A DNA stretch of 64,000 bases, taken from the NCBI RefSeq assembly GCF_041146795.1, contig NC_135187.1:1985501-2049500 (forward strand). Direction: 5' to 3'. Both the position numbers and the translations under genes were made by a program. This DNA is from Maylandia zebra. Lineage: Eukaryota > Chordata > Actinopteri > Cichliformes > Cichlidae. Below are positions 3,806-61,427 of this stretch, one piece after another; within the stretch, counting starts at the first letter, position 1, and each line of letters begins with the position of its first letter. The notes under the pieces were generated by a model. The model was not told where the DNA came from and made no database searches. It saw only the letters and a program-made list of their open reading frames with translations.

Positions 3806-6800
3806 ATATTTTAGTGAGTTTGGAAAAAGAGCAGCTGCAGAAAGAAGTGAAGCTGAAGGACAAGATGGAAGGTAAGAAACTATTAAGAAGTATTAAAGTT
3901 GGAGATGACTGTATTTGAGAGTGGGTTAATTTTATGTTTTAAATCAGATTCTTGTGTAAAGATAATCTGATAAAAAGAAACAAAACAAGTTGCAGCTGCT
4001 GACCTCCCAAACTAACATAAACAGGAGAAAACTGTTCAAAGTCAAAGGCAGCTCAGCCCTACAAACTATCAGGTTATGTTGTCCACGGTGTGGTGGAAGC
4101 TTCAGGACCCAAATGCAGAACATGGTGGGCAAATGTTAAACATAAAGTGTGTTTATTCCAGGAAAGTACAGATGGTCCGGAAAAGAGAAACAAAAATCCA
4201 TGAGGTACAAGAAAAACAGACAAAAAGAGTAGGAACAGCACAGCTAGTGAGACGACTGGACAAAGGGCGAGGGAAACAATGGGAATGAATACTAGTGATA
4301 GGAATTCTGTCTCTTTTTAGAGAACTGGCTCTTTCGGCTCCCAACCCTCTCTTTAGGTTGTTTTGTTGGTTTAATTAATTAATTATTAACAACAATGTAA
4401 AATTATGCACAAAATGAATTACTAATATAAAAAATATGTTTTATTTATGTATGTTTATTATAGGCAGCTCAGTCTATAATTATAAAATACAAAAACCAAC
4501 TATTTACAATTCCAGTTTTATTAACGATTTAAGTTTTCAGCTTTTACCTTTTAAACTAATTGAAAGTGAAACGACAACAAAAACCCCACAACACAACAAA
4601 ATATAAATTAACATGCAAAACAAAAAGAAGATGCACGTTCTCTGTCATATAGGCCCGGGATGATTTTTTGGGAGAGTGTTTTCCTGCTTGGAATTGCATA
4701 CATAGGATTCAGTGCATGAGTAAACTTTCTGAAAGTGCAATCATTTTTGCCAGCTCTTTATCAATTGAGTTCTGTCTTGCTGGGGTCACAGACTTCTGCA
4801 AAAACTGTTTAACAGAGCTCTGCGTTGGTTTAGGCGGTGGACAGTTCTCAGGTGCCTGTGCAGGTTGTTTGTGGAGCCGGCTCTATATGATATCCTTTTC
4901 TTGCAGACTCTACACTCTGCCTTTTGTTGCGAAATCAGTTTCACCCGGTTCTTTTTATTCCTCGGGCATCCAGAGACGGCACCAGAACTCAGTAGTCATT
5001 TCACAAAACCTTTATTCATCTTTATTCATCTTCATTTAAGCATGCATCTTCTAGAAGGGAAGACGTGCAAGGCCGGTGTCCCTCTGCAGATCTTCACTCC
5101 TTTGTCTGTTACAGCCAGCTTTATAGAAGTGACCCCATCATAAAACCCCCACGGTGTGCTGCAAACTCTGTGTCTGTGTGTATGCACGAGCACGTGAGTG
5201 CCTGTGTGTGCGCATACCCGTGTGTACATGAGTGAGTGTGCATGTAGGTGTGGGTGTGTCGTAACAGTCAAAGCACTTTGTGTCTGTGTGTCTGTATACG
5301 TGACGTCCTGGGGGTCATAAAAGTAATCTCACCCAAGCTACACCAAATTCCTCTACACAACATAGAAAACACAGTTAACATATTACAAACACTGAGACTC
5401 CCACTCTGCATCCACTGGGCCAGTGGCCTCTTGTTGTCTTACATTGACAGATAAGGTGGAGAGTCTCCTGCAAACCTACTTCTAAGTTTAGAACAATTAT
5501 GAGTTTTATTAAAGGTACAAACATCAGCATCAGCAACCCCCAACTGTAGCTTCCTGACTCCTTCTATGGCAGGCAGACCCCAGTGTCCATAAATTCCTTT
5601 CCTTCTAAACAATTACACTCTCAGCCTACAGCTAAGCCAAACTGAAACACAGACCAATCCTTCCTTATTCCTCTGATCTAAACAAATTTAACACATCATA
5701 TTATAATAATTATTTTCTTGCACTCACACTTTGTACTGTCAATGAAATATAAATGGTTCCAGATTGTGCTTCTTTTCTTGATGTCACTCATTTTCATTAC
5801 TACACCTTTCTATTGTGGTGATGTTGTCTATTGTTGTTGTCCCTGGCTCTCTCTCTCTCTCTCTCCCTCCTGCTCTGTTCCTGTGCTGCTGCGAGTGTAA
5901 CTACCGCCCCTCCCTCCTCTGCTCAGCGCAAACACAAGGCTCGCGTGTGGAGTGAAGCAAAAAAGAGATGAAACAGGAGGGGAACACAGCTGAACCTAAT
6001 CACAGAAAAACAGACAAAGAAAGTAAACTAAATACCAAACACAGCAGACAGGTTAAACAAAGGTTAAACAGGAAGTAATCAAACAAAGGAAACATCACTG
6101 ACTGTAGGGCCAAACATCGCTAATCGAAGATCAAGAAGATGAGTGACAGGTGCTCTGACCTGTGCAAAGTGTCCATTAATCTTTTGCTTGAAATTAAAAA
6201 TTTAACCTTTATTGTTCTAATTTCAACAACATCGATCCAACATTTGCCTCAAGCTCAAGTTTCCATATTCCAATTTCTGAAGATGACACCAAAAGGATCT
6301 CACACGACCTGATTCACACTGATACACGGTCAAAACACTGTTTGCCTCTGTCCCATCTCATCACACCTGAGCACCACTGAACCTGGATTAAAAGGTTATG
6401 GCGACAGTGGCAAGTAGGGTTACTACTCCCTCTTGTGCTGAGAAATTGCAATAGCACCAAAAACATAAAATGGCTCCAACACTGACAGAAACTTTACACA
6501 AAAGGGCAGAACACTGAAAATATAACATGCAAAAGTAGCATATGAATATAAACCCAAAGAGTTAAAGTTACATAAAAATAATAGAAAGGCCAAAAAAAAT
6601 CTAAATCACATATAACAGACCCAGGACCATAACACAACCTGCTTCAAACTCATCAGGAAACACAGAGTGAGAGCTGCACAGGTGTGGCAGGTTGGAACAA
6701 GGAAAAGCTGAATGAGTCGTCTGCAGACGGCGGCCATCTTGGCTCTTTATGTAATCATTAGGCTGCATGTTGGTGCACCAATCACAGCAGAGTACCTGCA

Positions 6801-9800
6801 CATGCCCGTTATCATCCTCTCATTCAGTCACAGCTGAGGCGCAGCATGCAGAGCTTTGCATGAAGGACAGAAAAACACAGCAGTTACACAAAATGACACA
6901 AATATGATGACAGTCATAACAACAGGTCAAAGTTCAGTCTGTTACTGTATCATAGACACTGATGCTGTGTGTGCTATATGAGATGCTGCAGGCAGTCAGT
7001 GTGAGTCTTCAGCAGTCTGAGCTACAAAGATGGGATCTTGGCTGCAAATGAATGTATGACTGATACTGAATCCCAGCAGCCAACAAACATGCAGCTTCAC
7101 AACCAGAACGTGTCCTTCTGCCACAGCAAATACAGGAAGTACCTGATCACATGGAAACACCTTTGATATGAGGAAGTGTTGAAGCCTCAGAGCAGCTTTG
7201 ACTGAATGTAAAAAGACATATTTTCAGTGAGAACAGGCACATGTCACATGAGTCAGCATCTATTCTTTCAAAGCATATAGATAACATCTCTGACTACAGG
7301 TGTAGAAATGCTGTTTGACTCTTCACCTTCTTCCTCCACACTGAAGCACAATTATTCTGAATCTTGTCAGTGGTTTTTGTTCACAGTTGATACGTATTTA
7401 GCTCATCAGATTTCCTGTAGTTCTAACACCTCCACCCACAGGACATGTTAAAGAGCAATGGCTGCAAGTTTCTGACTCTTATTGATATATTTGACAAAGC
7501 AGAGGAAGAAGATTATTTCTGTTCAACGTTTCACTCATTTTATTTTATTTTATTTTATTTTGGTTTCACTGAAATATTTCAGATGCTTTGAACAAGAGTG
7601 AATTCAACAAACTTCACTTCAAACACAATAAACTGAACCACAGTTACAACGAGCTACAGACTGAACATCAAGGTAAGAAAGTATTTAAAATTAACAAGAA
7701 AATACTAATGTCAGATAAAATTTATATTTACATTTTTTAACATGTTTTTTTCTACAGAGACAAAACGACTCAACAGTCAGTTACAGGAAGAAGTGAAGAA
7801 GCTGAAGGAGAAGATAGAAGGTAATAAAGTTTGAATAACTGATAGAAAACATCAGTGTTACACAGTGATAACCTGATTGTGTCTTTGTTTTGAATCCTAA
7901 ATGTTTGATGCTGTGTAACAGTTTCTCTGTATAAATGTAAGTTTCAGTTCATTATGAATAAGAGAGAAAACCTGAGTTTAAATGAAGCATTTACAGGGAA
8001 AATGACAGGAACCAAAGATTAATGTGATACAACAGGACACAAAGTCTGACTTTAAAACATGTGTTTGACTTTAAGAGAAGTGTCCTGAAGGATGGATGAG
8101 ATTTGGAAGCAAGTTTTACTTTAAATCCACTGAGAAGAAAACTTGGTCTGAGAGCAGGAGAGCCTGTCAGGATAAAGGAGCTGATCTGGTGATGATAAAC
8201 AGCAAAGAGGAACAGGTGGGTGTGTTTGTTCATGTCTGTGTGATCTTTGATGGAGCTGACAGTCATCTGTTACTTGTGTCTTTGACCTGCTGTCAGTCTG
8301 TGACCTGCTTCCTGTCTCCACTCTGATGGATTTCTTGGATTCTCCTTTTTTGTTGCAGACACATTCAAACGTAAAGTTTTTACACATTTGACAAACATTT
8401 AATTTACACAGAAATGTTATAAAATGAGAGAAATCCTCATAATCCAGATTATTTTTCTGATTCAATCCAACTGAATCAAATGATTTGTTAACACTGATTC
8501 CACTGCAACACTGACTGAGCTACAGGAGGAGCTGATATTCATTGATTCTTTGGCTCTTTCTGATTTCTGCACAATGGAAGAAACGTTTCATCACAGTTAT
8601 TCTTCCTTCAGACATGTTCACAAGATGATGTCACTACAACAGAAGTGCTGAATTATGACTGGAGACAATATTTGTGTCTCTTCTCAAACAGGAATTTGTC
8701 AGTAAATTTGGAGGACACTCTTGGATTGGTCTGGAAGCCAAACAGACATCAGGAGGATATGAATGGGAATGGGTGGACGGATCAGCGCTGACAGAAACGT
8801 GAGACATTAGTTTGTTTCTATTCCAGAGTCATTATTTAGAAGTGAAACACTGATGTTTTGGAAGATAGATCAGCAATACATGAGCTGAGCTATTTTCCAA
8901 CAGCCCCACAAACTGAATGTAAAGAAAAGCAGAAATCCTCCTTTGAATGAACAGCTGTGCTTGAACTCTCTTCATCTGCAGTCTGTGATGACGTTCAGTT
9001 ACAACAAGTCAGTTTGAAGGAATCAGGATTGAAACATGTTCAAAGCAGCGACCGACACATTTCACTTTGTTCAATTTGTCTTCATGTTTTTGTGCTGTAA
9101 TCAGAATCAGAATCAGAATCAGAATGGGTTTATTGCCAGATGTTGAGGTTTACAACATTAGGAATTTGCTGCGGTGCTTCAGTGCAAGCAATAAGAATTA
9201 AAGTGCTATGTAGAAAGAAAGATATGTGCATGAGATATATACATGAGAATAAGAATTAAGAGTGCTACGTAGAAGGATATATACATGAGTGCAGGTGGTG
9301 ATCAGTGCCAGACATGAAATGATGCAGTGACAGTGTTCATGTGTCCAACAGCAGAGGGGAAGAAACTGTTCTTGTGGCGAGAGGTTCTGGTGCGAATGGA
9401 CCGGAGCCTCCTGCCTGAGGGGAGCAGGTCAAACAGACTGTGTCCAGGGTGAGAAGGGTCAGCTGAGATCCGAGCTGCACGCCCCAGTGTCCTGGAGGTG
9501 TACAGGTCCTGCAGAGATGGGAGTCTGCAGCCAATCACCTTCTCAGCAGAGCGCACAACACGCTGCAGTCTCTGTTTGTCCCTGATAGTGGCTCCAGCGT
9601 ACCACACGGTGATGGAGGAGGTGAGGATGGACTCGATGATTGCAGTGTAGAACTGCATCATCGTCCGTGTTGGCAGGTTGAATTTCTTCAGCTGCCTCAG
9701 GAAGTACATCCTCTGCTGGGCTTTCTTAATGACGGAGGTGATGGTGGGCTCCCACTTCAGGTCCTGGGTGATGGTGGTACCCAGGAAGCGGAATGAGTCC

Positions 9801-11764
9801 ACAGAGGTGATGGGGGTGTCAGTTAGGATGATGGGGGGGAGTGGGGCTGTGTGCTTCCTGAAGTCCACAATAATCTCCACTGTCTTCTGGGCATTCAGCA
9901 CCAGGTTGTTGTGGCTGCACCAGGACACCAGACGTTCAACCTCCCTCCTGTAGGCAGACTCGTCCCCGTCCGAGATGAGTCCAATGACGGTGGTGTCATC
10001 TGCAAACTTGATTAGCTTGACAGACTGGTGGGTGGAGGTGCAGCAGTTGGTGTACAGGGAGAAGAGCAGAGGAGAAAGAACACAGCCCTGAGGGGAGCCG
10101 GTGCTGATGGTCCGGGAGTCCGAGACATTCTTTCCCAGCCTCACATGCTGCTTCCTGTCCGTCAGGAAGTCAGTAATCCACCGGCAGATGGGATCAGGCA
10201 CATTCATCTGGGAAAGCTTGCCTCGGAGATGGTCTGGAAGGATGGTGTTGAAGGCAGAGCTGAAGTCCACAAACAGGATCCTGGCGTAGGTTCCTGGGGA
10301 GTCCAGATGCTGCAGGATGAAGTGTAGGGCCATGTTGATGGCGTCATCTACAGACCTGTTGGCTCTATATGCAAACTGCAGGGGGTCCAGGAGGGGGGCC
10401 GTGAGGGTCTTGAGATGGGAGAGAACTAGGCACTCAAAAGACTTCATGACCACAGATGTCAGAGCCACGGGTCTGTAGTCATTTAGTCCAGTGATCCTAG
10501 GTTTCTTGGGGACAGGGATTATGGTGGAGGACTTGAAGCAGGCAGGCACATGACATGCCTGCAGTGAGGAGTTGAAGATGCCAGAAAACACTGGGGCCAG
10601 CTCGTTTGCACAGTGTCTGAGGGTGGCAGGAGACACACCGTCTGGGCCGGGAGCTTTCCGAGCATTCAGACTCTTAAACTGCTTCCTCACATCTGCTTCA
10701 TGAATATGAAGAGTTGTGGTGGGAGGAGGTGGTGTGAAATCCTCTTTTGTGTGGGGTGAGGAGGGGGGTGTTGTAGGTGAACAGTTTGAAGGTGGTGATG
10801 GCTCTATGGAGGGGGGAGAGGTGGGGGAATGAGTGTCCAAAGTGCCTCTATTGTTGGGGCCGTTGGAGGTGTGAAGGCTGCCTGATGGCTCGTCAAAACG
10901 GCAGTAGAAGTCGTTGAGGGTGTTGGCTAAGAGCAAGTCATCAGTGGAGTGGGGGGTTTTAGGCTTGTAGTTTGTAATATTCCTAAAACCTTTCCACACA
11001 GAGGCCGAGTCATTCTCTGAGATCTGCTGCTGCATCTTCTCAGAGTGCTGATGTTTGGCAATGTCCACTTCCTTAGTGAACCTGTACTTGGCCTCTCTGT
11101 AGCAGTCCCTGTCTCCGCTTCTGAACGCCTTACTCTTTTCCAGCCACAGCTTTTTGAGTTTAGGAGTAAACCAGGGTTTGTCATTGTTATAACTCACCCT
11201 GGTGTGTGATGGCACAATGTTTCTTTTCTCACAGAACAAAAAGTGTTTCAGAGAATTCCTGTCTCTTCTTCTTTGGTGTTTGTAAAACTTCAGAACATAT
11301 GAAGGAAGAAGCTTCAGTAAATATGACCTGATAGACACACATTTCAAAGTGATGTCTGTAAACAGCTGACAAAACAGTTTCAAACAGCAGAAAGTCAGCT
11401 CTGACTTCTTTTTATTCTCCATTTTTACAGCAGGAAGATTTCATATTCATCAAAGCTTGAAAGCTGTTTTAGTGTGCATGATGATTCTCAGAGAAAAGTC
11501 TAAAGGAGGGAAAGTGGGCGAGAAACCTGGGAAAGAAATACAGCAAATATTGGAAATATTCCAAAAGAGACGCATATTTATATGAATGTGACAATAGTTA
11601 TGAGTTTAGTCCAGTTTCATATCAGATTTGATCTCTCTGACAGGTTCTGGGCAGAAGGATGGTCAGATCCTTATTCTGGATACCGTGGAGTCTGCTGTGA
11701 CCGTGATGGGAAATGGATATATTCATCTTATTCTCATTCAACGACCTTCATCTGTGAGAAATGA
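3806..11764 (+). CDS. Gene A: CD209-like C-type lectin receptor, 3' part (six exons)
   Basis: Exons with AG/GT borders and matching phases: 3806-3871, 7583-7672, 7758-7820 (coiled-coil stem), 8076-8215, 8692-8798, 11644-11764 (C-type lectin domain, ending FICEK then TGA). They pair one to one with exons 3-8 of gene B. Tail and membrane exons are not in the window, so the gene starts to the left or is 5'-truncated. The frame is open throughout, so I do not call it a pseudogene. Oddities: the second Cys of the domain's N-terminal pair is replaced (FGSKFYF instead of FGSSCYF), leaving the Cys of KCPEGW unpaired, and the last intron carries a 2.1 kb antisense LINE. As in B and C, EPN/QPD and WND motifs are missing, so Ca2+-dependent sugar binding is doubtful. 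Likely role by family: type II surface pattern-recognition receptor of leukocytes. Confidence 0.85.
4070..6130. mobile_element. Old transposon-derived intron sequence of gene A
   Basis: The intron between the first two visible exons contains repeat-like pieces: a GGACCCAAATGCAGAAC...TTTATTCC segment (4086-4170) related to segments at 37400-37450 and 44290-44350, and a hAT-like segment (about 4293-4890) starting AGTGATAGGAATTCTG with AACTGGCTCTTTCGGCTC and later GAGCCGGCTC. Boundaries are not sharp. The stretch is duplicated almost unchanged at 16993-19055, so short open frames here are repeat-derived and not genes. Confidence 0.4.
6131..7582. other. Intron of gene A, conserved with genes B and C
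   Basis: No exon is visible. From about 7045 onward the intron is also shared with gene C (51331 onward), which shows that this 3' block was duplicated more than once. A (TTTTA)n run just before the next exon lies at 7537-7560. Confidence 0.5.
9102..11218 (-). mobile_element. Rex1-like (CR1-group) LINE, 5'-truncated, antisense in gene A intron
   Basis: A 2117-bp insertion absent from the same intron of genes B and C; the uninterrupted site reads GCTGTAATGTTTC at 22017-22029. A 3-bp AAT is repeated on both sides (9099-9101 and 11216-11218). The 3' tail of CAGAAT/ATTCTG units sits at the left edge. The minus strand has one open frame through a reverse transcriptase domain with LFVDFSSAFNTI (motif A), STGSPQGCVLSPLLF (motif B) and KFADDTTVIGLI (motif C), then the LINE C-terminal region. 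The endonuclease is missing, so it is 5'-truncated and not autonomous. The open frame continues upstream into host intron (to 11422), but those about 69 codons are host sequence also found in B and C. Rex1 naming is from memory of the family. Confidence 0.88.
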
Positions 11765-11992
11765 GTTTGGTGCTTTGATGTAAATGTTTGAATAATCCAA
11801 CCAAAGACACCTCACTATGAAATGTCCTGCATGAGCCTCAGACTCAGCTTACAGTCTTTACTTGTTCATTCTGCATCATATATTGATTACATATATTGTC
11901 CCTCTGTGCTCTGTGCTGTACAGTAAGGTTGGAAGTCATCCACACAAAACCTTGAAGTACTTCATTACTCTGTAGTTCCAGCAAATTGTTCT

Positions 11993-11998
11993 AATAAA
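11993..11998 (+). promoter_or_regulatory. Poly(A) signal of gene A
   Basis: AATAAA lies 229 bp after the stop codon. The same site occurs at 22800 in gene B and 58189 in gene C within near-identical 3' UTRs. Confidence 0.75.
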
Positions 11999-12120
11999 AG
12001 TCAAAGTGCAGCTTGTCTTTACTTTGCTTTACTTGGTTTATTCATCAGTCTGTTGGTCCTAAAACTTCAGTAAATGTCTTCTTCAGTTTCTCTCAAACAG
12101 CTGAAAGTTGCTGCTTCTTA

Positions 12121-12656
12121 CTTTTAGCTACAAATCAGGAACCAAGAGACTGAAACCAGCACAAATTCAGTTTGTCAAACTTACAACGTGTGAATAAGTG
12201 AAGATGAATCCGTTTAAAACAACTTTCCTTCTTCTTCTTCACTTACATCAAAACACAACTTTACCTTCCTGCTTAGTTTGCAGCGAGCTGCCTGCACAGC
12301 GTTAACACACTGAAGGTCAAAGTTCATTTCAGCATGACAGAAAGGAAAAGTCCAGAAACAACAACCCTCACAGTGGACACGGTTAAAGTCTGTTGATGAC
12401 TCTGAACATGACTCGGGTCTTTTTGTAACGTGGGCCTTAGTCGTCTTCATGAATCAGACAGTTTCAGAGCCAGTTTCCATGTGACACACTTCCTGCTTTG
12501 GACCCTTTACCTGCAGCCTGTATGTGTCCACATGTGATTGGTGCAAAGCTTTTAACTAATGACCACAGACCCTGGTTGTGTTTCGCTTCAGATGATTTTC
12601 AGCATTTCATTGAATTCTAACTGCATCAAAGACATTTCAGCGTTTCAATTCATCAA
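12121..12656. other. Intergenic spacer between genes A and B
   Basis: This is unique sequence after the A/B homology ends. No exon or transposon is recognised; an antisense 78-codon frame at 12214-12450 has no domain. Confidence 0.4.
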
Positions 12657-13560
12657 AATGACTTCAGATCTTGTTGCATGCTGTGAGTTTCTCTGCTGGT
12701 AAACTCGAAATAACTGAAGTTCACACTGACGCCATATTTCCTGCATCAGAAACATTCGCTCATTACTAACATTATATATTGTGTGATGACAGCAGCTTCT
12801 GAGAAAGCTATTTTTATGTTGCTGCTGCTAAGTTCAAGCTCAGTGTCTGTGCATTATGACAAACATTTCAAATACATTTGTGTCTTTGCTTGTATTGGTG
12901 TACAAGTATCTATGTATTAATGCATGTAATGGAAAAGTTTTCCAAATAAATGTAGAAAAGTATTTAAGCTGTCTGTGTTTGTGCTTTATTCTGCTGTTCG
13001 TTTCTGACTCATTCACATTTGTAATTAATCACAACGGCATCAATGAAATCTCAGTAATTAAACTGATAAATCTGAACTTCAGGTCTTGTTGAAATCTGTT
13101 TGTTTGTCTGTTTCCAACTGGAGACGGTGACAGTGACAGAGCGAACCTCTGCAACGCCGTGACGCCCCGTTAGCTTAGTTCACACTGACGTCATATTTCC
13201 TGTGTCACAAACTCTTCTTCTCTCTTCTCATTCTGTGGACTTACAACATGTAGAAACTCATGAAAGCAGCATCTAACAAAGGCATTGATGTGCATGTTGC
13301 TGCTGCTGAGTTCAGCCTCAGTGTCTCTGAGATATTCAGACAGGAAATGTTCAGAATGTTCTGGAGGTGTTTTAATGACTTTTTGAAGTCTTTGTTGTGT
13401 TCGTGGTTTGTTCTGCTGTTTCTGACTCGTTCACATTTGTCATCAATTAAAACTGCATCAGTCAAAGTTTTGCATTTGAAGTGAACTGAACTTCAGATCT
13501 TGTTGGATGCTGTTAGTGCTCCTAAATAACTCAGCGTTTCACACATCATGACGTGACAGG
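12657..13560 (+). repeat. Degenerate tandem ~415-bp repeat upstream of gene B
   Basis: Landmark phrases recur about every 415 bp: CTTCAGATCTTGTTG or variants at about 12662, 13078 and 13493; CACTGACG(C/T)CATATTTCCTG at about 12725 and 13184; and ATGTTGCTGCTGCT(A/G)AGTTC in the first two units. This gives two and a fraction units ending just before the gene B 5' UTR. A copy of the last part lies inverted at 43945-44110, so the block may be the gene's promoter region. Confidence 0.65.
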
Positions 13561-13672
13561 AAAACTGTGGCTCTCTTCTGGTTTGACTTCCTGGATATTT
13601 TCAGTTCAAAGCTGCCTGACTCAAAGAAACAGGCAGACAGTGACGGACGGTCAAATATCTTCTTAGCTTAAG
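13561..13672 (+). promoter_or_regulatory. Gene B proximal promoter / 5' UTR
   Basis: The 112 bp before the ATG are conserved in two places: ahead of gene D (CCTGCCTGACT...AGAAACAGACAGTGA, 60535-60563) and, inverted, at 43945-44040 (CTCTCTTCTAGTTTTACTTCC against CTCTCTTCTGGTTTGACTTCC here). The ATG context is TTAAGATGT. No clear TATA box is seen. Confidence 0.5.
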
Positions 13673-22571
<8,899 letters not shown>

Positions 22572-29327: not shown

Positions 29328-32300
29328 CAACAACAACAACAATAATCTTTATTTATAGAGCACATTTAAAAGCCTTGGGCATACCAAAGTGCTTTACATA
29401 AAACAATAAAAGGTTCAAACATTGATAACGGATAAATAAAAATAACGAGTTATGTTCATAGATAAAAGCTACCAATAAGAATGACTACAGCACATGGGTA
29501 ATAGCAAGATAAAAGCTGTACCACCATAATAAAAGACACCAATAGAAAGATAAGAGGGAATTAATACAAGAGGTCAATAGGTCACAGCAACCAAACAAAC
29601 AAACAAACAAACCAGCAATTAAAAGGTGGAGAAGGCAAGTTTAAAAAGATATGTTTTAAGCTGAGATTTAAAAGAATGAATAGAATCAGATGCCCGGATG
29701 CCAATCGGGAGATTGTTCCACAGCACAGGTGCGACAAGAGCAAACGATCGATCACCTCTAGTCTTAAGTCGAGATCTGGGCTGAGCCAGCAGTAACTGTG
29801 ACGATGACCTTAAAGCCCTAGCAGGAGCATAAGGGTTTAAAAGGTCCTTAAGGTAGCTGGGTGCAGTGTTGTTAGTAATTTTAAAAGTAAACAACAAAAT
29901 TTTAAATTGAATACGATATTTGACAGGCAACCAGTGCAGATCGGCAAGGACAGGAGTAATGTGGGCAAACTTGCTGGTTTTAGTTAGAATGCGAGCTGCA
30001 GCATTCTGAACTGTCTGTAATCTCTGTAAAAGGGAAGAGTGGAGACCACAATAAAGTGAATTACAATAGTCTAGCCTCGACGTTACAAAGGCGTGGATGA
30101 GCTTTTCGAGATCTTTATGCGGGATATAGCGCCTAGCCTTAGAGATAAGACGAAGCTGCTAAAAACTAGATCTGACAACAGCAGACACTTGTTTGTCAAG
30201 TGAAAAGGAGCTGTCAAATAAGACACCCAGATTCCTGACAGTATCAGAGAGAGAACAACTAAGAAAACCAAAGGCATCCCGGAGTTTGGCACGAAGGGCG
30301 TTACTACCAAAAATCATAATCTCGGGTTTCTTCTCATTAAGGATAAGAGAATTCGACAACAACCACTTCTTGGCCTCAAACATGCATTCTCGGAGGCTAT
30401 TCAGAGACAGAGCAAGATCGTCGTTTAGCTCAAAATAGAGCTGGATATCATCTGCATAATAGTGATAAGCAATATGGTATTTCTCAAAGATGGCACTTAA
30501 GGGAAGCAAGTATAATGAGAAAAGGGTAGGGCCCAGCACAGATCCCTGGGGGACACCACAGCAAACAGGTACAGCCGAGGAAGAGGATGTAGCCAGATGT
30601 ACCGTAGAGAGCCGATTGGAGAGATAGGATTTAAACCAATCCAGGGCAGCGCCCTTGATGCCTACAGTGTGCTCAAGTCTCGCTAATAAGATATTATGGT
30701 CAACCATGTCAAATGCCGATGATAGATCCAAAAGCACTAAGACTGAGGGGCGTCCGTTGTCAGCCATTAGTAGGAGATCATTGAAAACACGAAGCAATGC
30801 TGATTCTGTGCTGTGATGTTGTTTGAAGGCCGATTGAAATTTATCATTTATATTATTCTCATCAAGGTAGGTCTGCAGTTGGAGCAGAACCACCTTCTCA
30901 AGTATTTTAGCCAGAAAGGGAAGCTTAGAAATTGGCCTAAAAGTGGCAAAATCACTAAGCTCAAGGTTCCTTTTTTTTAGAACAGGTTGGATTATGGCAT
31001 GCTTGAGAGCTGAAGGTACATAGCCAGAAAGCAAGGAGAAGTTCAATATGGACAATAAACAAGGTCCAATTACACTGAAACAATCCTTAACAATACGGGA
31101 TGGGAGAGCATCATGTACACAGTTAGTGTTGTTCAATTTATCAATTAGACGCTTCAGAGTGGAGAGAGAAACGGGTTCGAATTGATAAAAAGTGGCCGAA
31201 CAATCAGGGGTAGACATACAATCAGTCACCAGAGGAAGAGTAGATCTAAGGGATAAAACTTTATCTAAAAAATAGTTTGAGAATTTTCCACAAAGACCCG
31301 GGGAAGACAGCAGTGGCATAGAGGGACAGGGGTTCACCACAGAGTTAAAAAATTTAAATAGAATTCGTGGATTATCACCATTAGTGGAAATAATTTTAGA
31401 GAGAAAAGCCGCTTTAGCCGTTCTGGCAGCAGTTTGGAACTTCGAGCGGCTAATACGTAAAATATCATAAGAAGACTGAAGTCTATCACTCCTCCACTTC
31501 CTCTCATCACGCCGACATATACGTCGAAGGGCACAAACAGAATTATTTAACCAGCATTGTGAGAAAGTTCTAGGGCGTTTCATTTTGATGGGTGCAACAA
31601 TGTTAAGAATCGAGGAACAGGTGGTTAAAAGAGTATTAGTAGAGTTCTCAAGTGTGTGTGGGGAAGAACAATCCAGCATACTAAATGGGGAGTTAACAAA
31701 AGACGTAATAAAGTTGACCACAGTATTGGCATTAATAGTGCGCGTAGGATAAAGAGGAGAGTTTAGGTATTGTCCAGTATCACCCAGGTCTACATCGAAA
31801 ATGACCGGGGAATGATCAGAGAGACCAGTATTCCTGATTTCCTTAATGCAAATGTCCACATTGAATGAAAAAACCAAATCAAGGGTGTGGCCTTGAACAT
31901 GGGTAGGCTCATTCACCCACTGAATAAGATTAAAGGAATCAGTCAGCACAAGAAAATCTTTAGCCAATTGGTCATTCATACAGCAAACATGAATGTTAAA
32001 ATCTCCAGAAACAATAACAGCATCATATTTAAAAAGAACGGATCCCAAAAAATCAGCAAATTCAGAGATAAACATCTTATGATATTTAGGCGGGCGATAA
32101 ACCACGACACACAAAGTGGTCCGAGAGCCCGTCAGTTCCAATAGCTGAACTTCAAAACTGGAATAGGTTGGAGAGGATAGCAGCCGTGCATCATGTTTAT
32201 TTTTGAAAACCGAGGCTAAGCCACCACCTCTACCAGTTAGCCTAGGTGAGCTAAAGAAGGCACAGTCAGGAGGTAGAAGCTCAGAGAAGGGGATGAACTC

Positions 32301-33016
32301 ACCCGGAGAAGTCCAGGTCTCCGTTAGAAATAGGACATCCAGTCCTGAGGTGAGAAAAAAGTCATTTAGGAGGAAGGCCTTATTTGAAAGAGACCTGACA
32401 TTAAATAAGGCCAACCGAATCCGGGGGGCCAGGACCTTAGTAGTAGCCCGTCGCAAGGAGCAAAGGTTGTTATGTTGAACACCGCGGCCAGGCGGTGTTA
32501 TCCAAAATCGGGCAGAGTGGTAAGCCACTGGGCGAGGAGGGTAGGTTTGAAGGCCGACGGAGCAAATCCAACGGTGGGTTAGCAGTCTAGCCGCAGAGTG
32601 GCTGCTGAGATAGTGGAAGAAACGGGATAGCTCACGGCCTGTAGAAGGGAAGTCCATAGCCATGGCTCTGATATAAGCCTTAACGCGGACACGGACGCCG
32701 CTCCTCCTACCCCGTTTCCTGAGGCGTTTCCTACGGAGCATGGGAAGAGGAGGATAGGTCACATAGGTAGGGGAGACAGGCATCAGGGGGATAGCGGCAC
32801 CGGCTGTAACGCAGTCAGGTCGTTGAGAACAGGAAAACCGAAGATTCAGGAGCGTGTCTCTGTCATAAGTTATTAGTGTACAATCACCTAGAGAACATAA
32901 AACCAAAGATAAAACAACGAGAAGTACAACGCCAAGGTGAAGACGTGGTCGGAGACGGTCAGCCATGCACACCGGCGCCATCTTGCTTCCACTGTACATA
33001 CGGTAAAGTGGAAGCA
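29328..33016 (-). mobile_element. L2-group LINE (inner), nearly full length
   Basis: Inserted in the outer L2 with a 5-bp AGTGA duplication (29323-29327, 33017-33021). 3' tail of CAA/TTG units at 29328-29340. The minus-strand frame from about 32980 encodes, in order: an N-terminal hydrophobic stretch and LITYDRDTLLNLRFS; an APE-type endonuclease with LFLTETW, VSGDFNIH and GLSDHSPV; and a reverse transcriptase with [30 protein letters not shown] and YHYYADDIQLYFE. One TAG at about 30159 splits the frame; reading resumes with QLRLISKARRYI and continues to the natural C-terminus at 29619 (FKSQLKTYLFKLAFSTF). About 3.7 kb with only that stop makes it among the best-preserved elements here. Confidence 0.92.
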
Positions 33017-33018
33017 AG
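32982..33018. repeat. 12-bp inverted repeat at the 5' end of the inner L2
   Basis: CTTGCTTCCACT (32982-32993) and its exact reverse complement AGTGGAAGCAAG (33007-33018) flank a 13-base loop, exactly at the element's 5' boundary. The last two bases overlap the target duplication. Confidence 0.85.
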
Positions 33019-33840
33019 TGAGGACTTGAGCAGCAGAGTTCTGAATGAGCTGTAGTTGTCTGACTGATTTTTTAGGTAGACCTGTAAAGATGCTGTTACA
33101 GTAATCAAGCCTACTAAAGATGAAAGCATGGACTAGTTTTTCCAGGTCCTGTTGAGACATCAGATCTTTTATCCTTGAAATATTCTTGAGGTGATAGTAA
33201 GCTGATTTTGTTATTGTCTTAATGTGTTTTTCTAAGTTTAGGTCTGCATCCATCACTACACCCAAATTTCTCGCCTGGTTTGTGGTTTTTAGATGTATAG
33301 ATTGAAGTTCTCTGGTGACCTGTAATCGTTTTTCTTTGGCGCCAAAGACTATTACTTCAGTTTTGTTTTTGTTTAGCTGGAGAAAATTGTGGCACAACCA
33401 GTCATTAATTTCCTCAATGCATTTACCAAGAGCCTGTACAGGGCCTCGGTCTCCTGGTGACATTGTGATATATATTTGTGTGTCATCTGCATAGCTGTGG
33501 TAGTTTATTTTGTTGTTCTTTATAATCTGTGCCAGTGGGAGCATGTAAATGTTAAACAGAAGGGGTCCCAAGATGGAACCTTGGGGAACTCCACATGTGA
33601 TACTTGTCTGCTCAGATGTGAAGTTACCCATTGATACAAAATATTTCCTGTTTTCTACGTATGTTTTGAACCAGTTTAGTACAGTTCCTGAGAGACCTGC
33701 CCAGTTCTCCAGTCGTTTGAGTAATATGTTGTGGTCTACTGTATCAAATGCTGCACTGAGATCCAGTAAAACTAAGGCTGACATTTTTCCACTGTCTGTA
33801 TTCAGACGTTTGTCATTGAACACTTTGGTCAGCACTTTGG

Positions 33841-34110
33841 TAGTACGACTTTGCTAAGCTACAGAGCTGCCCCGCTTGATGGATTGTCGGAGCATTACAG
33901 CTACCGTAGTCAGGAGCCTCGCGGAGTGATACGTACTGTGCTTCAACGTAATATTACAGTATTGTGTGTGTGTGTGTGTATAAGGACCATAAATGGCACC
34001 TGTAAGAGACGTGGTTACGAAGCGGATTTCAAACTCCAGGCTGTCAGTCACGCAGTAGAAGTTCGGAACAGTGCAGCTATGAAATCTGTCTCTTTGTTGT
34101 TGCGCTCAGC
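33841..34110 (+). mobile_element. Pogo/Tigger-like element, right fragment with HTH remnant
   Basis: It continues the fragment at 26884-27000. The first part matches gene C's pogo-like element (GATGGATTGT(C/T)GGAGCATTAC, CCGTAGTCAGGAGCCTC). Further on the plus strand reads RRGYEADFKLQAVSHAVE, the start of the Brinker/CENP-B-type DNA-binding domain found at the N-terminus of pogo/Tigger-like transposases; a (GT) run precedes it. The frame ends soon after, so the transposase is dead. Confidence 0.65.
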
Positions 34111-50698: not shown

Positions 50699-53600
50699 AT
50701 GTCCTCAGATATTTATGCTGAACCAGATCTATCAAAGAAGGTGAGATACAGCAGAAAGGAGGACGGAGCAGAGTGGGAGCAGAGGGAGGTGGATACCTAC
50801 GAGAGTACAGATGAGATCAGAGATAGTTATGATCATTTTCAGTCGCAGGAAGGAGGTAAGTCAATTATACAAATAAATGTACTTCCAGTTTGTTACAGTC
50901 AGCTTTTAATGCCAAATAACTGCAGCTCATCAAACATCTGTTTCTCCATGTGCTGTATGAACCTTTGTAGTTTACGTTTTTTTCCCACGTTGGTTTGTAG
51001 AGCTCTGTGAACAGCAAATTGATTCAGGCACTTTAGTTACAGTGCAGATGTTATATTTCCTTGTTTTTTGGCAACCGACCCTTTTATGAAGCTAAGTTGA
51101 TACAACCACAACCACAGGTCTATTAAACACAGAGTGACAGGAAATAAGCACAGACCAACATCCACACTGCTTTCTAACAGGACCACAGACTCTGAATCCT
51201 CCTTCAGTCCTGAAGGGCTCTTTCAGATGTGCTACACTGGGTCTAAGAGTGCTGTGCCTCCTGATGTTAGCTGGGATCATCATCCTGTCCATATGCTGTA
51301 AGATAAGATACAACCTCTGAACTTCTCCTGCAAATGAATGTATGACTGATACTGAATCCCAGCAGCCAACAAACATGCAGCTTCACAACCAGAACGTGTC
51401 CTTCTGCCACAGCAAATACAGGAAGTACCTGATCACATGGAAACACCTTTGATATGAGGAAGTGTTGAAGCCTCAGAGCAGCTTTGACTGAATGCAAAAA
51501 GACATATTTTCAGTGAGAACAGGCACATGTCACATGAGTCAGAATCTATTCTTTCAAAGCATGTAGGGCTTTGGAGTTGACGTCACGCCGCAATGCATTG
51601 TGGGAGCGCGGCACCATTTTCGGGGTCTACGAATCAAAACAAACACACTGTTGGAACGACGATTACAAGATGCTTAAAAGCAGCTCAAAAGAGAACGGAC
51701 TGTATAGAGACCGATTGCGTCCAGAGGCGAAGCAGCTGTACTTGCAGAAAAGAGCCTGCATTGGAAATGTGGATCCGTATGAAATACGGCAGTGGAGTAG
51801 AAACCCTGGAGACCAACCGCTACTGACGTAGCCTGACATAGTTCATACCTTATCTGTGGAGTCAGCGCGTACAAGTCGTCATTCGAACAAAGGTAAGTCA
51901 GCTCGAGTACTGCGAGTGAAATGCGTTTGATTTTCCTGCAAACATTCACATTAGTGCAGCATAAATTCATTCATGAGGGGAAATTACAGTGAGAACATGT
52001 GGAGGCTGTTAGAGGGATAACATAGTGAGTTCAGTGCATTGATGAGACATTGTCCTGAAGGATTTAGTTATTCTTTATGGTTAAAGAAATTGCAATGATT
52101 TATTCATATTTATTATAAATAATCCTAATTATACATCTTGCGTCAATATTTGTATCTTGTGTCACTAAAATACATTTTATTTTAGTTTTATACATTGATC
52201 AATGACCTGCAGAATCTCATATCATATTAAGTGATTCATAACTGTCAATTTATGCTTTCTCCATCTCTAAAGTGATGACATCCTTGCATTACATACTTTA
52301 GGTTCATTTTCTGCAGGCAGGTTTCTGACAGAACAGGCAGATTTACACTATAACCTGCAGCGATGGACACATAAAGAAATGAAAAATGACATGTATGTGC
52401 TAACTTTCTAAACACTTTGTTACATTTATGATAAAGTAGATTAAACACATTTGTGTCGGCCTTGGCTCATAGTTCTTGTCTTTAAATGAACTTTGTCTGT
52501 GTGTGTTTCAGGTCCTGCACTCTCAAAGACTGAATGAACCAGCATTGCAGCCATGGGTCACTGTGAGCATCACAGGGAAGGTTGAAGTCGCCCGCTGCAC
52601 CTGCATGGCCGGAGTCACGGAGACCTGCACCCACGTCACTGCTCTTCTGTTTAATGTAGAAGCAACAGTGTTGATCTGTGGCACAAGGACTGTTACAGAT
52701 GAACCTGCATACTGGGTTTTGCTGGGTAATATGACCAAGATACAGCCAGAGGTTGGCCATAAGATAGACTTCTCCTCTTCAGCTGCCCAAAAAAGGCTCT
52801 TGATCAAAACATAAACAGACCATCTGTAGTGACGGGGAAAAGGAGCCTCAAAACAGAAAAATCCCACCTGCTACTGTGGAGGAGTCGTCACTGCTATAAT
52901 GCCATAATGTTTTATCTAGGGGTCTAGATTTATGCCTGTAGTGCACTGCCGTGTAAATAATTTGCATTTACTGAATATGTACTGACTGAGTCCCGCTGTT
53001 CAAAAGTTGAATAAAGAAACAAACTAATTTTTGCCTCTTTTTTTTTTTTTAAATTAAAACCACTTTATAGAACATCACATTACATGTAGAATCCATGTCA
53101 TTTACAGTTTACAAATGACAAAATGTTTACACAAAATCATGTGTTTACATGATATCACCCACTACTAACATTACTTTATTTACTGTATCTTTTGAAAAAA
53201 TACAGCTATTTATACAGCAAAAGACTTAAGAATATTTAACAGGAGCAGGTTTCATTTTTCCCTTGTTTTATTATCACACTGTTCACCAAACGCAGCAAAC
53301 CTTCACCATCTTATCCTGAAGGGTCACCTCTTCACCCTCACATGGAAGAAGTAATCTGATTGGCATGGTGGTATGTTTGAAGCAGGTTCCTTGTGTAGCG
53401 CTGGAACTCAGTCACGATGTTTCATCCATTTCATTGGCTGGTTTGCTGCAATAATGCCAAATAATTAGCAACTCTATAAATAGAAGGTAGTTCTGCAAAA
53501 TCACTCAGTAGGATGTTTGTTCTAATTTGCTATGACCTCAGAGCGCATCAAAAATAAAACTAATAGGCTATAAAGATATGAACATATTTAGAACTTACCA

Positions 53601-56600: not shown

Positions 56601-57966
56601 GTTAGTCATTAACATACTGCAACAACATGGGAACAGAGCAGCTGCAGAGAATTCAGCATTAATGAATCAATGGTAGGGAAGTGGAGGAAGCAAGAAGAAT
56701 AAGTTGAGTAAAATATGACTTATCTGACTGTTTGGTTTTCACCTTATAATCTGGTGCGCCTTATGGTGTGAAAAATACAGTAAATCCAACTGAATCAAAT
56801 GATTTGTTAACACTGATTCCACTGCAACACTGACTGAGCTACAGGAGGAGCTGATATTCATTGATTCTTTGGCTCTTTCTGATTTCTGCACAATGGAAGA
56901 AAAGTTTCATCACAGTTATTCTTCCTTCAGACATGTTCACAAGATGATGTCACTACAACAGAAGTGCTGAATTATGACTGGAGACAATATTTGTGTCTCT
57001 TCTCAAACAGGAATTTGTCAGTAAATTTGGAGGAGAGTCCTGGATTGGTCTGAGAGCCAAACAGACATCAGGAGGATATAAATGGGAATGGGTGGACGGA
57101 TCAGCGCTGACAGAAACGTGAGACATTAGTTTGTTTCTATTCCAGAGTTATTATTTAGAAGTGAAACATGGATGTTTTGGAAGATAGATCAGCAATACAT
57201 GAGTTGAGCTATTTTCCAACAGCCCCACAAACTGAATGTAAAGAAAAGCAGAAATCCTCCTTTGAATGAACAGCTGTGCTTGAACTCTCTTCATCTGCAG
57301 TCTGTGATGACGTTCAGTTACAACAAGTCAGTTTGAAGGAATCAGCATTGAAACATGTTCAAAGCAGCGACCGACACATTTCACTTTGTTCAATTTGTCT
57401 TCATGTTTTTGTGCTGTAATGTTTCTTTTCTCACAGAACAAAAAGTGTTTCAGAGAATTCCTGTCTCTTCTTCTTTGGTGTTTGTAAAACTTCAGAACAT
57501 ATGAAGGAAGAAGCTTCAGTAAATATGACCTGATAGACACACATTTCAAAGTGATGTCTGTAAACAGCTGACAAAACAGTTTCAAACAGCAGAAAGTCAG
57601 CTCTGACTTCTTTTTATTCTCCATTTTTACAGCAGGAAGATTTCATATTCATCAAAGCTTGAAAGCTGTTTTAGTGTGCATGATGATTCTCAGAGAAAAG
57701 TCTAAAGGAGGGAAAGTGGGCGAGAAACCTGGGAAAGAAATACAGCAAATATTGGAAATATTCCAAAAGAGACGCATATTTATATGAATGTGACAATAGT
57801 TATGAGTTTAGTCCAGTTTCATATCAGATTTGATCTCTCTGACAGGTTCTGGGCAACAGGATGGTCAGATCCTTATTCTGGATACCGTGGAGTCTGCTGT
57901 GACAATAATAGGAAATGGACGGGGTCATATGATCCTGAATCAAAGACCTTCATCTGTGAGAAATGA
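50699..57966 (+). CDS. Gene C: CD209-like C-type lectin receptor, complete, chimeric
   Basis: Seven exons join in one frame: 50699-50855, 51181-51297, 54220-54258, 54339-54443, 55385-55524, 57011-57117, 57846-57966; 786 nt, 261 aa. Layout: tail 1-72 beginning MSSDIYAEPDLSKKVRYSRK, with a possible YxxF endocytic motif (YDHF); membrane segment about 73-91 (GLRVLCLLMLAGIIILSIC); coiled-coil stem 92-139 with an NHS sequon; C-type lectin domain 142-260 ending FICEK. The tail is the kind seen in fish CD209-like proteins and unlike that of B and D, whereas from 51328 on introns and exons match units A and B. The first lectin exon is identical to B over all 140 nt, the last is closer to A. EPN/QPD and WND motifs are absent and the CC pair is present. 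Three transposons sit in its introns. Confidence 0.9.
51563..53929 (+). mobile_element. ISL2EU-like DNA transposon with SWIM zinc-finger exons, in gene C intron 2
   Basis: 2367 bp with TIRs GTAGGGCTTTGGA on both ends (right end in reverse complement GTAGGGCTTTGGA) and a 2-bp AT duplication (51561-51562, 53930-53931). Units A and B lack it. Inside, 51671-51828 encodes RLRPEAKQLYLQKRACIG then NVDPYEIRQW, and 52509-52811 encodes VLHSQRLNEPALQPWV and CTCMAGVTETCTHVTALLF, a CxC...CxH SWIM zinc finger. In fish these strings belong to SWIM plus YqaJ-exonuclease proteins, and ISL2EU elements are reported to carry a YqaJ-domain gene; both are from memory. Neither a YqaJ domain nor a transposase is visible here, so the copy is internally deleted and non-autonomous. 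Superfamily is inferred from TIR, AT duplication and cargo. Confidence 0.65.
52476..52814 (+). pseudogene. SWIM zinc-finger exon of the ISL2EU-like element
   Basis: An AG acceptor (TTTCAG at 52507-52512 region) precedes an open frame with the SWIM motif CTCMAGVTETCTHV, then DEPAYWVLLGNMTKIQPEVG and a stop at 52812. In full-length relatives a nuclease domain follows, which is missing here. An upstream exon at 51671-51828 ends PLLT with a stop. I read this as a broken cargo gene of the transposon and not a host gene. Confidence 0.6.
54605..55290 (-). mobile_element. L2-like LINE 3' end, decayed, in gene C intron 4
   Basis: About 686 bp absent from units A and B, where GAGTTTAAATGAAGC reads straight through. 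The left end is an (ATA)n-like tail. On the minus strand a diverged C-terminal LINE region is recognisable (an AVPQLWNSLP-like string at about 54800-54760 and a leucine-rich region typical of the end of L2 ORF2). Many stops. Confidence 0.65.
55788..56780 (+). mobile_element. Pogo/Tigger-like non-autonomous element in gene C intron 5
   Basis: 993 bp with TIRs CTATATTTTCCACACTATAA and, in reverse complement on the right, CTGTATTTTTCACACCATAA, both going on to GGCGCAC. A TA duplication flanks it (55786-55787, 56781-56782), as for Tc1/mariner/pogo elements; unit B has no insertion. The internal part matches 26884-27000 plus 33841-33950. It has no intact transposase, only a 123-codon frame without motifs. 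Confidence 0.8.
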
Positions 57967-60592: not shown

Positions 60593-61427
60593 ATGTCTGC
60601 AGACAGTCAGACTGCAGCCGATTTTAGAGTGAAATACAGCAGAAGGATCGACAGTGATGGACGAGAGCAAGAGCACAGTGAGGTTGAGATGCTAGATGAT
60701 GGAGAACAACATCCTGATGTTGGGCTGCAGGCAGCTGGTAAGCAGGAAATAAATAAACTATTGTACTATTGCAAGGTCTTGACCTCACAAAACAAAGTGC
60801 CTTGAGCCAACTGTTGTTGCGATTCTGCGCTATATAAATAAAACTGAATATGAGGGAATTTAAGTTGGTTTAATATGTTTAAAAACTGTTCAGTCGTCAA
60901 AAAATTACAGAAAAGGAGGGAAGTTCCACAAGACTCTTATCTGACAGATCCGAGGCAAAGGTAGAAATATTAAAAACAAGGAAGCCTTCTTAGACACTGT
61001 GTGGTGCAAGTGAAACCACAGGAAACAACTCGAGAGTGGTCTTCATGTCTACAGAGCTAATTGTATTTTTAAGCTTATTTTCGACCATACTGACAGATAT
61101 ACTGGCCTTTTTCTGGCCCACATGCTCTAAGAATCACCTAGAAATATTTCTCCTTCTCAAACACTGTTTCTCTGTTTTCTATATGTTAAACATTCTCCTG
61201 TAAATATGAGACTAACACGATGAACTTGTTCAGCTCATTCTCAAGATGAGTGCAGTCTGATTACGACGTATTAATTAAAATAATACAATAATTAAATCTC
61301 AATTTTGTCTCTGTAGAATTAAACATCCAGATGAAGCTTTTAGCTGTGAAAAGAAGATGGTTCAGAGCTTTTGAAGTGAATCTTGGGCTGCTGTATCTTT
61401 TGATTCTGTCTGGAATCACCACACGAT
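60593..61427 (+). CDS. Gene D: CD209-like C-type lectin receptor, first two exons only
   Basis: Exons 60593-60737 and 61317-61427 have the same lengths (145 and 111 nt) and phases as gene B exons 1 and 2. Exon 1 codes 48 residues with VKYSRRIDSDGREQEHSEVE and MLDDGEQHPDVGLQAA; exon 2 codes a juxtamembrane stretch and the membrane segment VNLGLLYLLILSGITT, ending in the same split codon before GTGAG. It is thus the closest relative of gene B for the tail, although C lies between them. Stem and lectin exons are not present up to 64000, where an L2 LINE and a relic of the gene C-type promoter occur; the gene either continues beyond the window or was cut off by a rearrangement. Confidence 0.8.

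What the first reader, a model, noticed from the sequence alone, without database searches (positions are those of the whole stretch)
11644..22571. Last lectin exon is hypervariable inside near-identical flanks
Exon 11644-11764 (A) against 22451-22571 (B) differs at 24 of 121 bases by hand count; only two changes (CCT/CCC, GGA/GGT) are silent. The 200 bases of intron before and over 200 bases of 3' UTR after differ at 0-1 positions. Substitutions 20-fold denser in the exon than beside it, and almost all amino-acid changing, point to diversifying selection on the binding face, or import of a divergent exon by conversion. The changed residues are those between the WVDG core and FICEK, where C-type lectins bind ligand.
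Basis: seen in the sequence. Interest (0 to 1): 0.88.

Follow-up and report, generated by a model that had tools for sequence, protein, structure and literature searches.

The report
Mosaic hypervariable lectin-domain exons in cichlids
In a cichlid fish, neighbouring copies of an immune-type lectin gene are almost identical except in the exons for the ligand-binding domain, where short variable segments seem to have been exchanged between gene copies and kept different by selection.

Summary
In detail: copies A and B differ at 24 of 121 exon bases, against 1 of 200 before and 0 of 284 after. All three lectin-domain exons are hot (8/141, 9/107, 24/121; noncoding 32/7039), the neck exons are not (0/184). 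The genes belong to a haplochromine cichlid CD209-like/cKLR cluster; Maylandia zebra protein P0003 carries copy A's lectin domain.

The two variable stretches of the last exon lie where some relatives carry EPN and WND sugar/calcium motifs, absent here. Fast amino-acid change alone fits poorly: silent sites are raised too (B/C 13% against 0.3-0.7%), genealogies differ between exons and introns, and cichlid lectin domains carry a mosaic signal that no-recombination simulations do not reach (0 of 150; 0-2 of 300 on a stricter set).

Best reading: short-tract gene conversion moves binding-site segments among paralogues, and diversifying selection keeps them apart while flanks are homogenised. Not shown: dN/dS inside exon 3 is not significantly above 1 (p 0.36, 0.09, 0.19), and no donor DNA could be examined.

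The parts
8075..8215 (+). Copy A lectin exon 1 (counted stretch; splice acceptor probably after 8075)
   Evidence: A/B 8 of 141 differences, all replacing; B and C identical here
8692..8798 (+). Copy A lectin exon 2 (WIGL, WVDG)
   Evidence: A/B 9 of 107
11644..11764 (+). Copy A lectin exon 3 with stop; variable stretches HV1 about 11649-11691 and HV2 about 11702-11742
   Evidence: A/B 24 of 121; 34 variable columns among the three copies
7576..7822 (+). Copy A neck (coiled-coil) exons, about 7576-7680 and 7757-7822
   Evidence: tblastn; 0 A/B differences in the 184 bases counted
13673..14045 (+). Copy B 5' exons: cytoplasmic 13673-13816, transmembrane 13935-14045
   Evidence: 100% match to M. 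zebra P0066
20499..20746 (+). Copy B neck exons, about 20499-20603 and 20681-20746
20999..21139 (+). Copy B lectin exon 1
21616..21722 (+). Copy B lectin exon 2
22451..22571 (+). Copy B lectin exon 3 with stop
50699..51296 (+). Copy C 5' exons: cytoplasmic 50699-50857, transmembrane about 51180-51296
   Evidence: 100% match of 53 residues to M. zebra P0028
54335..54451 (+). Copy C neck exon
   Evidence: 94% match to P0028
55384..55524 (+). Copy C lectin exon 1, identical to copy B's
   Evidence: B/C 0 of 141
57011..57117 (+). Copy C lectin exon 2
57846..57966 (+). Copy C lectin exon 3 with stop
   Evidence: A/C 17, B/C 30 of 121
60593..61426 (+). Fourth gene, first two exons only (60593-60736, 61331-61426); its lectin exons were not found in the window
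   Evidence: transmembrane exon matches A. calliptera P0001 at 100% over 32 residues

Best explanation
These are tandem type-II membrane C-type lectin genes of the cichlid CD209-like/cKLR cluster. Short-tract gene conversion, or an equivalent unequal exchange, among paralogues moves segments of tens of bases within the three lectin exons and also homogenises introns and 3' UTRs. Diversifying selection on the ligand-binding loops keeps exon variants apart while their surroundings become identical. The binding positions lack the EPN and WND motifs, so the ligand is probably a protein or another calcium-independent target. Shown: exon-restricted hypervariability, raised silent divergence in the exons, a mosaic signal in the family, the position of the variable stretches. 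Inferred: gene conversion as the agent, selection as the retaining force, the ligand.
For: Divergence confined to lectin exons 1-3 (8/141, 9/107, 24/121 against 32/7039; neck 0/184). Silent sites raised in exons 2+3: 10.0, 4.2 and 13.2% (A/B, A/C, B/C) against 0.65, 0.48 and 0.32% noncoding; strictly silent codons 3, 1, 4 against 0.31, 0.23, 0.15 expected (p 0.004, 0.21, 2e-5); with 71 more 3' columns p 0.008, 0.25, 4e-4. Pattern of relatedness differs between exon 1 and its flanks and between the two exon blocks. All 6 residues that set A's exon 1 apart recur in other M. zebra or A. calliptera proteins in other combinations. Four-gamete conflicts 18 of 36 pairs among 9 exon-1 haplotypes. Mosaic signal: 0 of 150 no-recombination simulations as low; on 12 rows without three odd ones 2, 0 and 0 of 300 for windows 1, 2, 5. 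Variable stretches lie at the EPN and WND positions.
Against: dN/dS within exon 3 is not significantly above 1 in any pair; of the three whole-domain tests only A/C reaches p 0.035, uncorrected. For A/C the silent excess is not significant. Tree tests on exon 3 do not reject A+B+C (p 0.495) or A+B (p 0.19) as clades, so greater age of the exon lineages than the species split is only suggested. With three copies, the relatedness patterns alone could arise without exchange if one copy changed fast. No donor tract was seen: the genome search did not complete. Copy A shows no 5' exon in the window.
Confidence: 0.68

Rival explanations
1. Accelerated point substitution under positive selection after recent duplication, without exchange: each copy gained its residues independently.
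For: Changes mostly replacing, at binding positions; variable columns by codon position 13, 14 and 7. The A/C pair has little silent excess (1 strict codon, p 0.21). Exon 1 of A differs from B by 8 replacing and 0 silent changes.
Against: Silent divergence raised in A/B and B/C; mosaic signal; A's exon-1 residues all occur in paralogues.
Confidence: 0.2
2. A and B are two haplotypes of one locus put in tandem by the assembler; the exon difference is allelic.
For: A/B background divergence of 0.45% is low enough for allelic copies; reads were not available.
Against: A holds a private 2.1-kb insert, the repeat starts after B's 5' exons, and copy C, with 17 of 342 noncoding differences next to exon 1, shows the same hypervariability. 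Even if true the exon hypervariability would stand, as allelic diversity.
Confidence: 0.06
3. A targeted mutator (adenine-directed reverse transcription or deaminase) acts on the exon.
For: Very local excess; a reverse-transcriptase frame lies in the intron of copy A.
Against: 15 of 34 variable columns hold no A in any copy; A/B changes are 12 transitions and 12 transversions. The insert is in copy A alone. Untemplated mutation would not place the same residues in paralogues.
Confidence: 0.02
4. Relaxed constraint or pseudogene decay in redundant copies.
For: Copy A has F at position 14, where 69 of 81 relatives have cysteine, and no 5' exon was found for it in the window.
Against: Loss of constraint alone cannot exceed the neutral rate of the flanks, and the exon is 44-fold above it. 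The frames of all three copies are open and the WIGL, WVDG and ICEK core is kept.
Confidence: 0.02

Closest known systems
Cichlid killer-cell-like lectin receptors (cKLR) of Paralabidochromis chilotes and Oreochromis niloticus
   Same: Cichlid multigene C-type lectin cluster without canonical calcium/carbohydrate residues (described in PMC514892, passages; 26 genes in PMC1193534; 28 loci in PMC6400144)
   Different: The original papers were not seen, so exon-restricted mosaic variation may or may not be described there; the passages seen do not mention it
Accelerated segment switch in exons (ASSET), snake venom three-finger toxins
   Same: Short exon segments at the target-binding surface differ radically among gene copies (PMC2711939, abstract and passages)
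   Different: There the authors call recombination unsatisfactory as mechanism; here a pool of paralogues and mosaic signal point to exchange; membrane lectin, not toxin
MHC, Ly49 and KIR-type families diversified by conversion and selection (recalled)
   Same: Tandem immune receptors, variable binding site, conserved scaffold
   Different: Here the low background divergence of the flanks makes the exon restriction unusually sharp
Bacterial diversity-generating retroelements with lectin-fold variable proteins (recalled)
   Same: Hypervariable residues on a C-type lectin fold
   Different: No adenine-directed pattern here; unrelated host and element

Membership tests
C-type lectin-like domain proteins | Pfam Lectin_C match above cut-off | tested here: met
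   57.2, 57.7 and 58.6 bits against 22.6 (3 of 3 copies); model matches CD23 and CLEC10A lectin domains
Cichlid CD209-like/cKLR cluster | Close cichlid relatives in tandem | tested here: met
   33 of 39 hits carry a cichlid name (5 other fish, 1 without name; 5 of the 33 clusters also carry a Mustela label); three lectin-domain copies and a fourth gene start in the window. The link to the published cKLR sequences was not tested
Calcium-dependent sugar-binding C-type lectins (DC-SIGN/CD209 sensu stricto) | EPN/QPD and WND motifs | tested here: not met
   Copies read WSD/HGN/WSD at 89-91 and WIY/WRR/WTG at 107-109
Type II membrane receptor | Cytoplasmic, transmembrane, neck and lectin exons in order | tested here: met
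   Found for B and C; for A no cytoplasmic or transmembrane exon found in the window
ASSET-like exon evolution | Exon segments far more divergent than introns between recent gene copies | tested here: met
   24/121 against 32/7039
Gene-conversion mosaic | Segment-wise conflicting relationships | tested here: met
   at protein level; DNA donors not examined
Positive selection | dN/dS significantly above 1 | tested here: inconclusive
   Exon 3 p 0.36, 0.09, 0.19; whole domain p 0.14, 0.035, 0.33
Diversity-generating retroelement | Adenine-specific variation from a template repeat | tested here: not met
   15 of 34 variable columns without any A; no search for a template repeat was made

The most novel reading that the evidence does not exclude
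The cichlid cluster is a germline segment-shuffling system for innate receptors: a shared pool of short binding-loop cassettes is copied between paralogues that carry different cytoplasmic tails, so that recognition surfaces and signalling ends are combined freely, at a rate well above ordinary gene conversion.
Probability: 0.2. Interest if true: 0.8.

Novelty: new variant of a known kind. Interest (0 to 1): 0.55.

Why it matters
Variation is confined to the recognition exons of nearly identical tandem genes and centred on the former sugar-binding motifs. Silent sites and a paralogue pool can decide a disputed question: whether rapid segment switching in exons, as in venom genes and immune receptors, is templated exchange or piled-up point mutation. 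In haplochromine cichlids, with young species and several sequenced genomes (recalled), turnover of receptor surfaces could be followed directly.

Tried and rejected
A protein search on the exon-3 end of B gave 4 proteins among 6 candidates, P0001-P0004, at 65-71% identity. Tree tests on exon 3 did not separate the hypotheses. Ten paper searches: no title or abstract start in the listings reports this pattern in fish lectins; six papers were looked into by term only. Sato et al. 2003 is not held; Kikuno et al. 2004 was not looked up.

Rejected: adenine-directed or deaminase mutagenesis, relaxed constraint, selection on point mutations alone as the whole story.

Corrected: the first A/B alignment gapped the exon wrongly and was replaced by ungapped blocks. 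The first four-gamete run took a wrong stretch for P0032-P0034 and was redone; the residue list is not changed by it, as the correct stretch of P0032 and P0034 equals that of P0066.

Left out of counts: the 3' columns beyond 12048, where A loses homology soon after 12119 (71 of them put back); columns with gaps; 4 columns with three different bases and all sites beyond 11742 (switch test); P0045, P0046, P0051, P0052 and P0023 from the mosaic test (13 of 18 proteins plus B and C), and also P0008, P0009 and P0050. The family alignment A3 took 83 of the 132 proteins listed; itself listed 120 of 1042 matches.

Full report
Check of the observation. The last lectin exon of copy A (11644-11764) differs from that of copy B (22451-22571) at 24 of 121 bases without gaps. 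The 200 bases before it differ at 1, the 284 bases after it at 0, and the following 71 bases at 3. Over the aligned A/B blocks, noncoding differences are 32 of 7039 (0.45%), so the exon is 44-fold denser (Fisher p 7.6e-29). The densest 100-base stretch holds 24 differences; in 2000 shuffles the highest was 9.

All three lectin exons are raised between A and B: 8/141, 9/107 and 24/121. The neck-exon regions are not (0/184), so this belongs to the lectin domain and not to coding sequence in general. Copy C shows the same in exons 2 and 3: A/C 8, 6 and 17; B/C 0, 8 and 30 differences in exons 1, 2 and 3.

What the genes are. The domain is a C-type lectin (Pfam Lectin_C, 3 of 3 copies). Of the 39 proteins of the first search, 33 carry a cichlid name, 5 another fish and 1 none; 5 of the 33 clusters also carry a Mustela putorius furo label, presumably a mislabelled record. 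P0003, annotated from Maylandia zebra, has copy A's whole lectin domain. Gene B's two 5' exons match M. zebra P0066 at 100%, 53 residues of gene C's first exon match M. zebra P0028 at 100%, and 32 residues of a fourth gene's transmembrane exon match Astatotilapia calliptera P0001 at 100%. The window is therefore from a haplochromine cichlid, most probably M. zebra or a close relative (inference). B and C have cytoplasmic, transmembrane, neck and lectin exons. For A no cytoplasmic or transmembrane exon was found in the window, so A may be truncated. B and C have different types of 5' end and nearly identical 3' parts.

Where the variation lies. In an alignment of 83 relatives, EPN/QPD-type motifs start at domain position 89 (8 sequences) and WND-type motifs at 107 (7 sequences). 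The variable stretches of exon 3, residues 85-99 and 103-116, cover these places; A, B and C read WSD, HGN, WSD at 89-91 and WIY, WRR, WTG at 107-109 (sequences). The 33 positions that vary among A, B and C have mean family entropy 2.55 bits against 1.39 for the other 89 (p 1.5e-7). The AlphaFold model of P0003 has mean pLDDT 90 and matches the lectin domains of CD23 and CLEC10A best; the loop with the first stretch is its least certain part (blocks of 73 and 67).

Point mutation with selection, or exchange? Positive selection on new mutations raises replacement changes only. Here silent sites are raised too: in exons 2 and 3, 10.0% (A/B), 4.2% (A/C) and 13.2% (B/C), against 0.65, 0.48 and 0.32% in noncoding DNA of the same block. 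Counting only strictly silent codons gives 3, 1 and 4 against 0.31, 0.23 and 0.15 expected (p 0.004, 0.21, 2e-5). With 71 further 3' columns included the p-values are 0.008, 0.25 and 4e-4. In A/B and B/C the exons thus look older than their flanks; in A/C this is not significant. Relatedness also changes along the gene. Around exon 1, noncoding DNA sets C apart at 17 of 342 columns, but the exon sets A apart at 8 columns with B and C identical. In the exon 2-3 block only 1 of 1240 noncoding columns sets C apart (p 5e-11). In exon 3, the first stretch groups A with C at 16 of 18 columns; the second has 8 columns setting C apart, 4 A, 1 B and 3 with three bases. The order of patterns is non-random (0 of 20000 shuffles for the exon-1 block; p 0.00015 for the exon 2-3 block). 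With only three copies, such patterns could also arise if single copies changed fast, so they are supporting rather than decisive evidence.

Evidence from other cichlids. All six residues that set A's exon 1 apart recur, in other combinations, in M. zebra or A. calliptera proteins. Nine exon-1 haplotypes (11 M. zebra proteins plus A, B, C) show four-gamete conflict in 18 of 36 informative pairs, a minimum of 4 exchanges. In 15 distinct cichlid lectin domains, neighbouring informative sites conflict far less than distant ones (ratio 0.45; 0 of 5000 permutations as low). In 150 no-recombination simulations with site-specific rates and residue profiles the ratio averaged 1.01, minimum 0.67. Without three odd rows (12 rows, 300 simulations) 2, 0 and 0 simulations were as low for windows of 1, 2 and 5 sites. 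Repeated mutation at the same residues could add some conflict; it would not make neighbours agree. B's first stretch is closer to an Oreochromis protein (15 of 20) than to A (11 of 20), but tree tests do not reject a clade of the three window copies (p 0.495) or of A+B (p 0.19). An age beyond the species split is therefore suggested only.

What is not shown. dN/dS within exon 3 is above 1 in each pair but not significantly (p 0.36, 0.09, 0.19). For the whole domain the values are p 0.14, 0.035 and 0.33, uncorrected for three tests. Third codon positions are not significantly under-represented among variable columns (7 of 34, p 0.08). Selection is inferred from variation concentrated at binding positions in an otherwise conserved fold. 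No donor tract was found, because the genome search did not complete.

Alternatives. An assembly product is unlikely: A carries a private 2.1-kb insert with a reverse-transcriptase frame, the repeat begins after B's 5' exons, and C repeats the pattern. Adenine-directed or deaminase mutation does not fit (15 of 34 variable columns without A; 12 transitions and 12 transversions). Relaxed constraint cannot exceed the flank rate.

Comparison with what is known. Cichlid KLR clusters without canonical calcium/carbohydrate-binding residues were described in 2003-2004; I know them here only through passages of PMC514892, PMC6400144 and PMC1193534, which cite 28 loci and 26 genes for Nile tilapia, and PMC4691118. 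ASSET in venom genes is the closest pattern; its authors find recombination and other mechanisms unsatisfactory (PMC2711939, abstract and passages). A C-type lectin family 4 gene was reported duplicated in a Malawi cichlid (PMC3944005, passages). In ten paper searches no title or abstract start reports exon-restricted mosaic variation in fish lectin receptors, but the library is partial and the two founding papers were not seen.

Verdict. Real, strong, and wider than described: a new variant of a known kind, in which tandem immune-type lectins most likely evolve by exchanged and selected binding segments. Interest 0.55.

Noticed in passing
window 9102-11215: Copy A's intron between lectin exons 2 and 3 holds a 2.1-kb insert absent from B and C, with a long minus-strand reverse-transcriptase frame (Pfam RVT_1) and a CAGAAT repeat at one end; LINE-type by inspection.
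   Followed up: partly
window 8799, 21723, 57118: The splice donor GTGA after lectin exon 2 makes an in-frame stop if the intron is retained. Several annotated fish proteins end exactly there (for example P0012, P0066, P0087, P0093 at TET or TQT), which may be truncated models or real short isoforms.
   Followed up: no
copy A, residue 14 of the lectin domain (exon 8075-8215): F replaces a cysteine present in 69 of 81 relatives, probably leaving a partner unpaired. The family also has adjacent cysteines at 100-101 (47 and 49 of 81) and the window copies lack a cysteine after the WND position.
   Followed up: partly
window 3808-3912 and 16731-16835: Weak match to the neck part of P0022 in both A and B units (58% and 56% identity): perhaps an unused or extra neck exon.
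   Followed up: no
window 30159-33853 (-) and 40250-42888 (+): Further long frames that look like reverse-transcriptase elements by eye.
   Followed up: no
window 37029-37334 (-): Short frame that resembles a retroviral envelope transmembrane fragment by eye; no Pfam match.
   Followed up: partly
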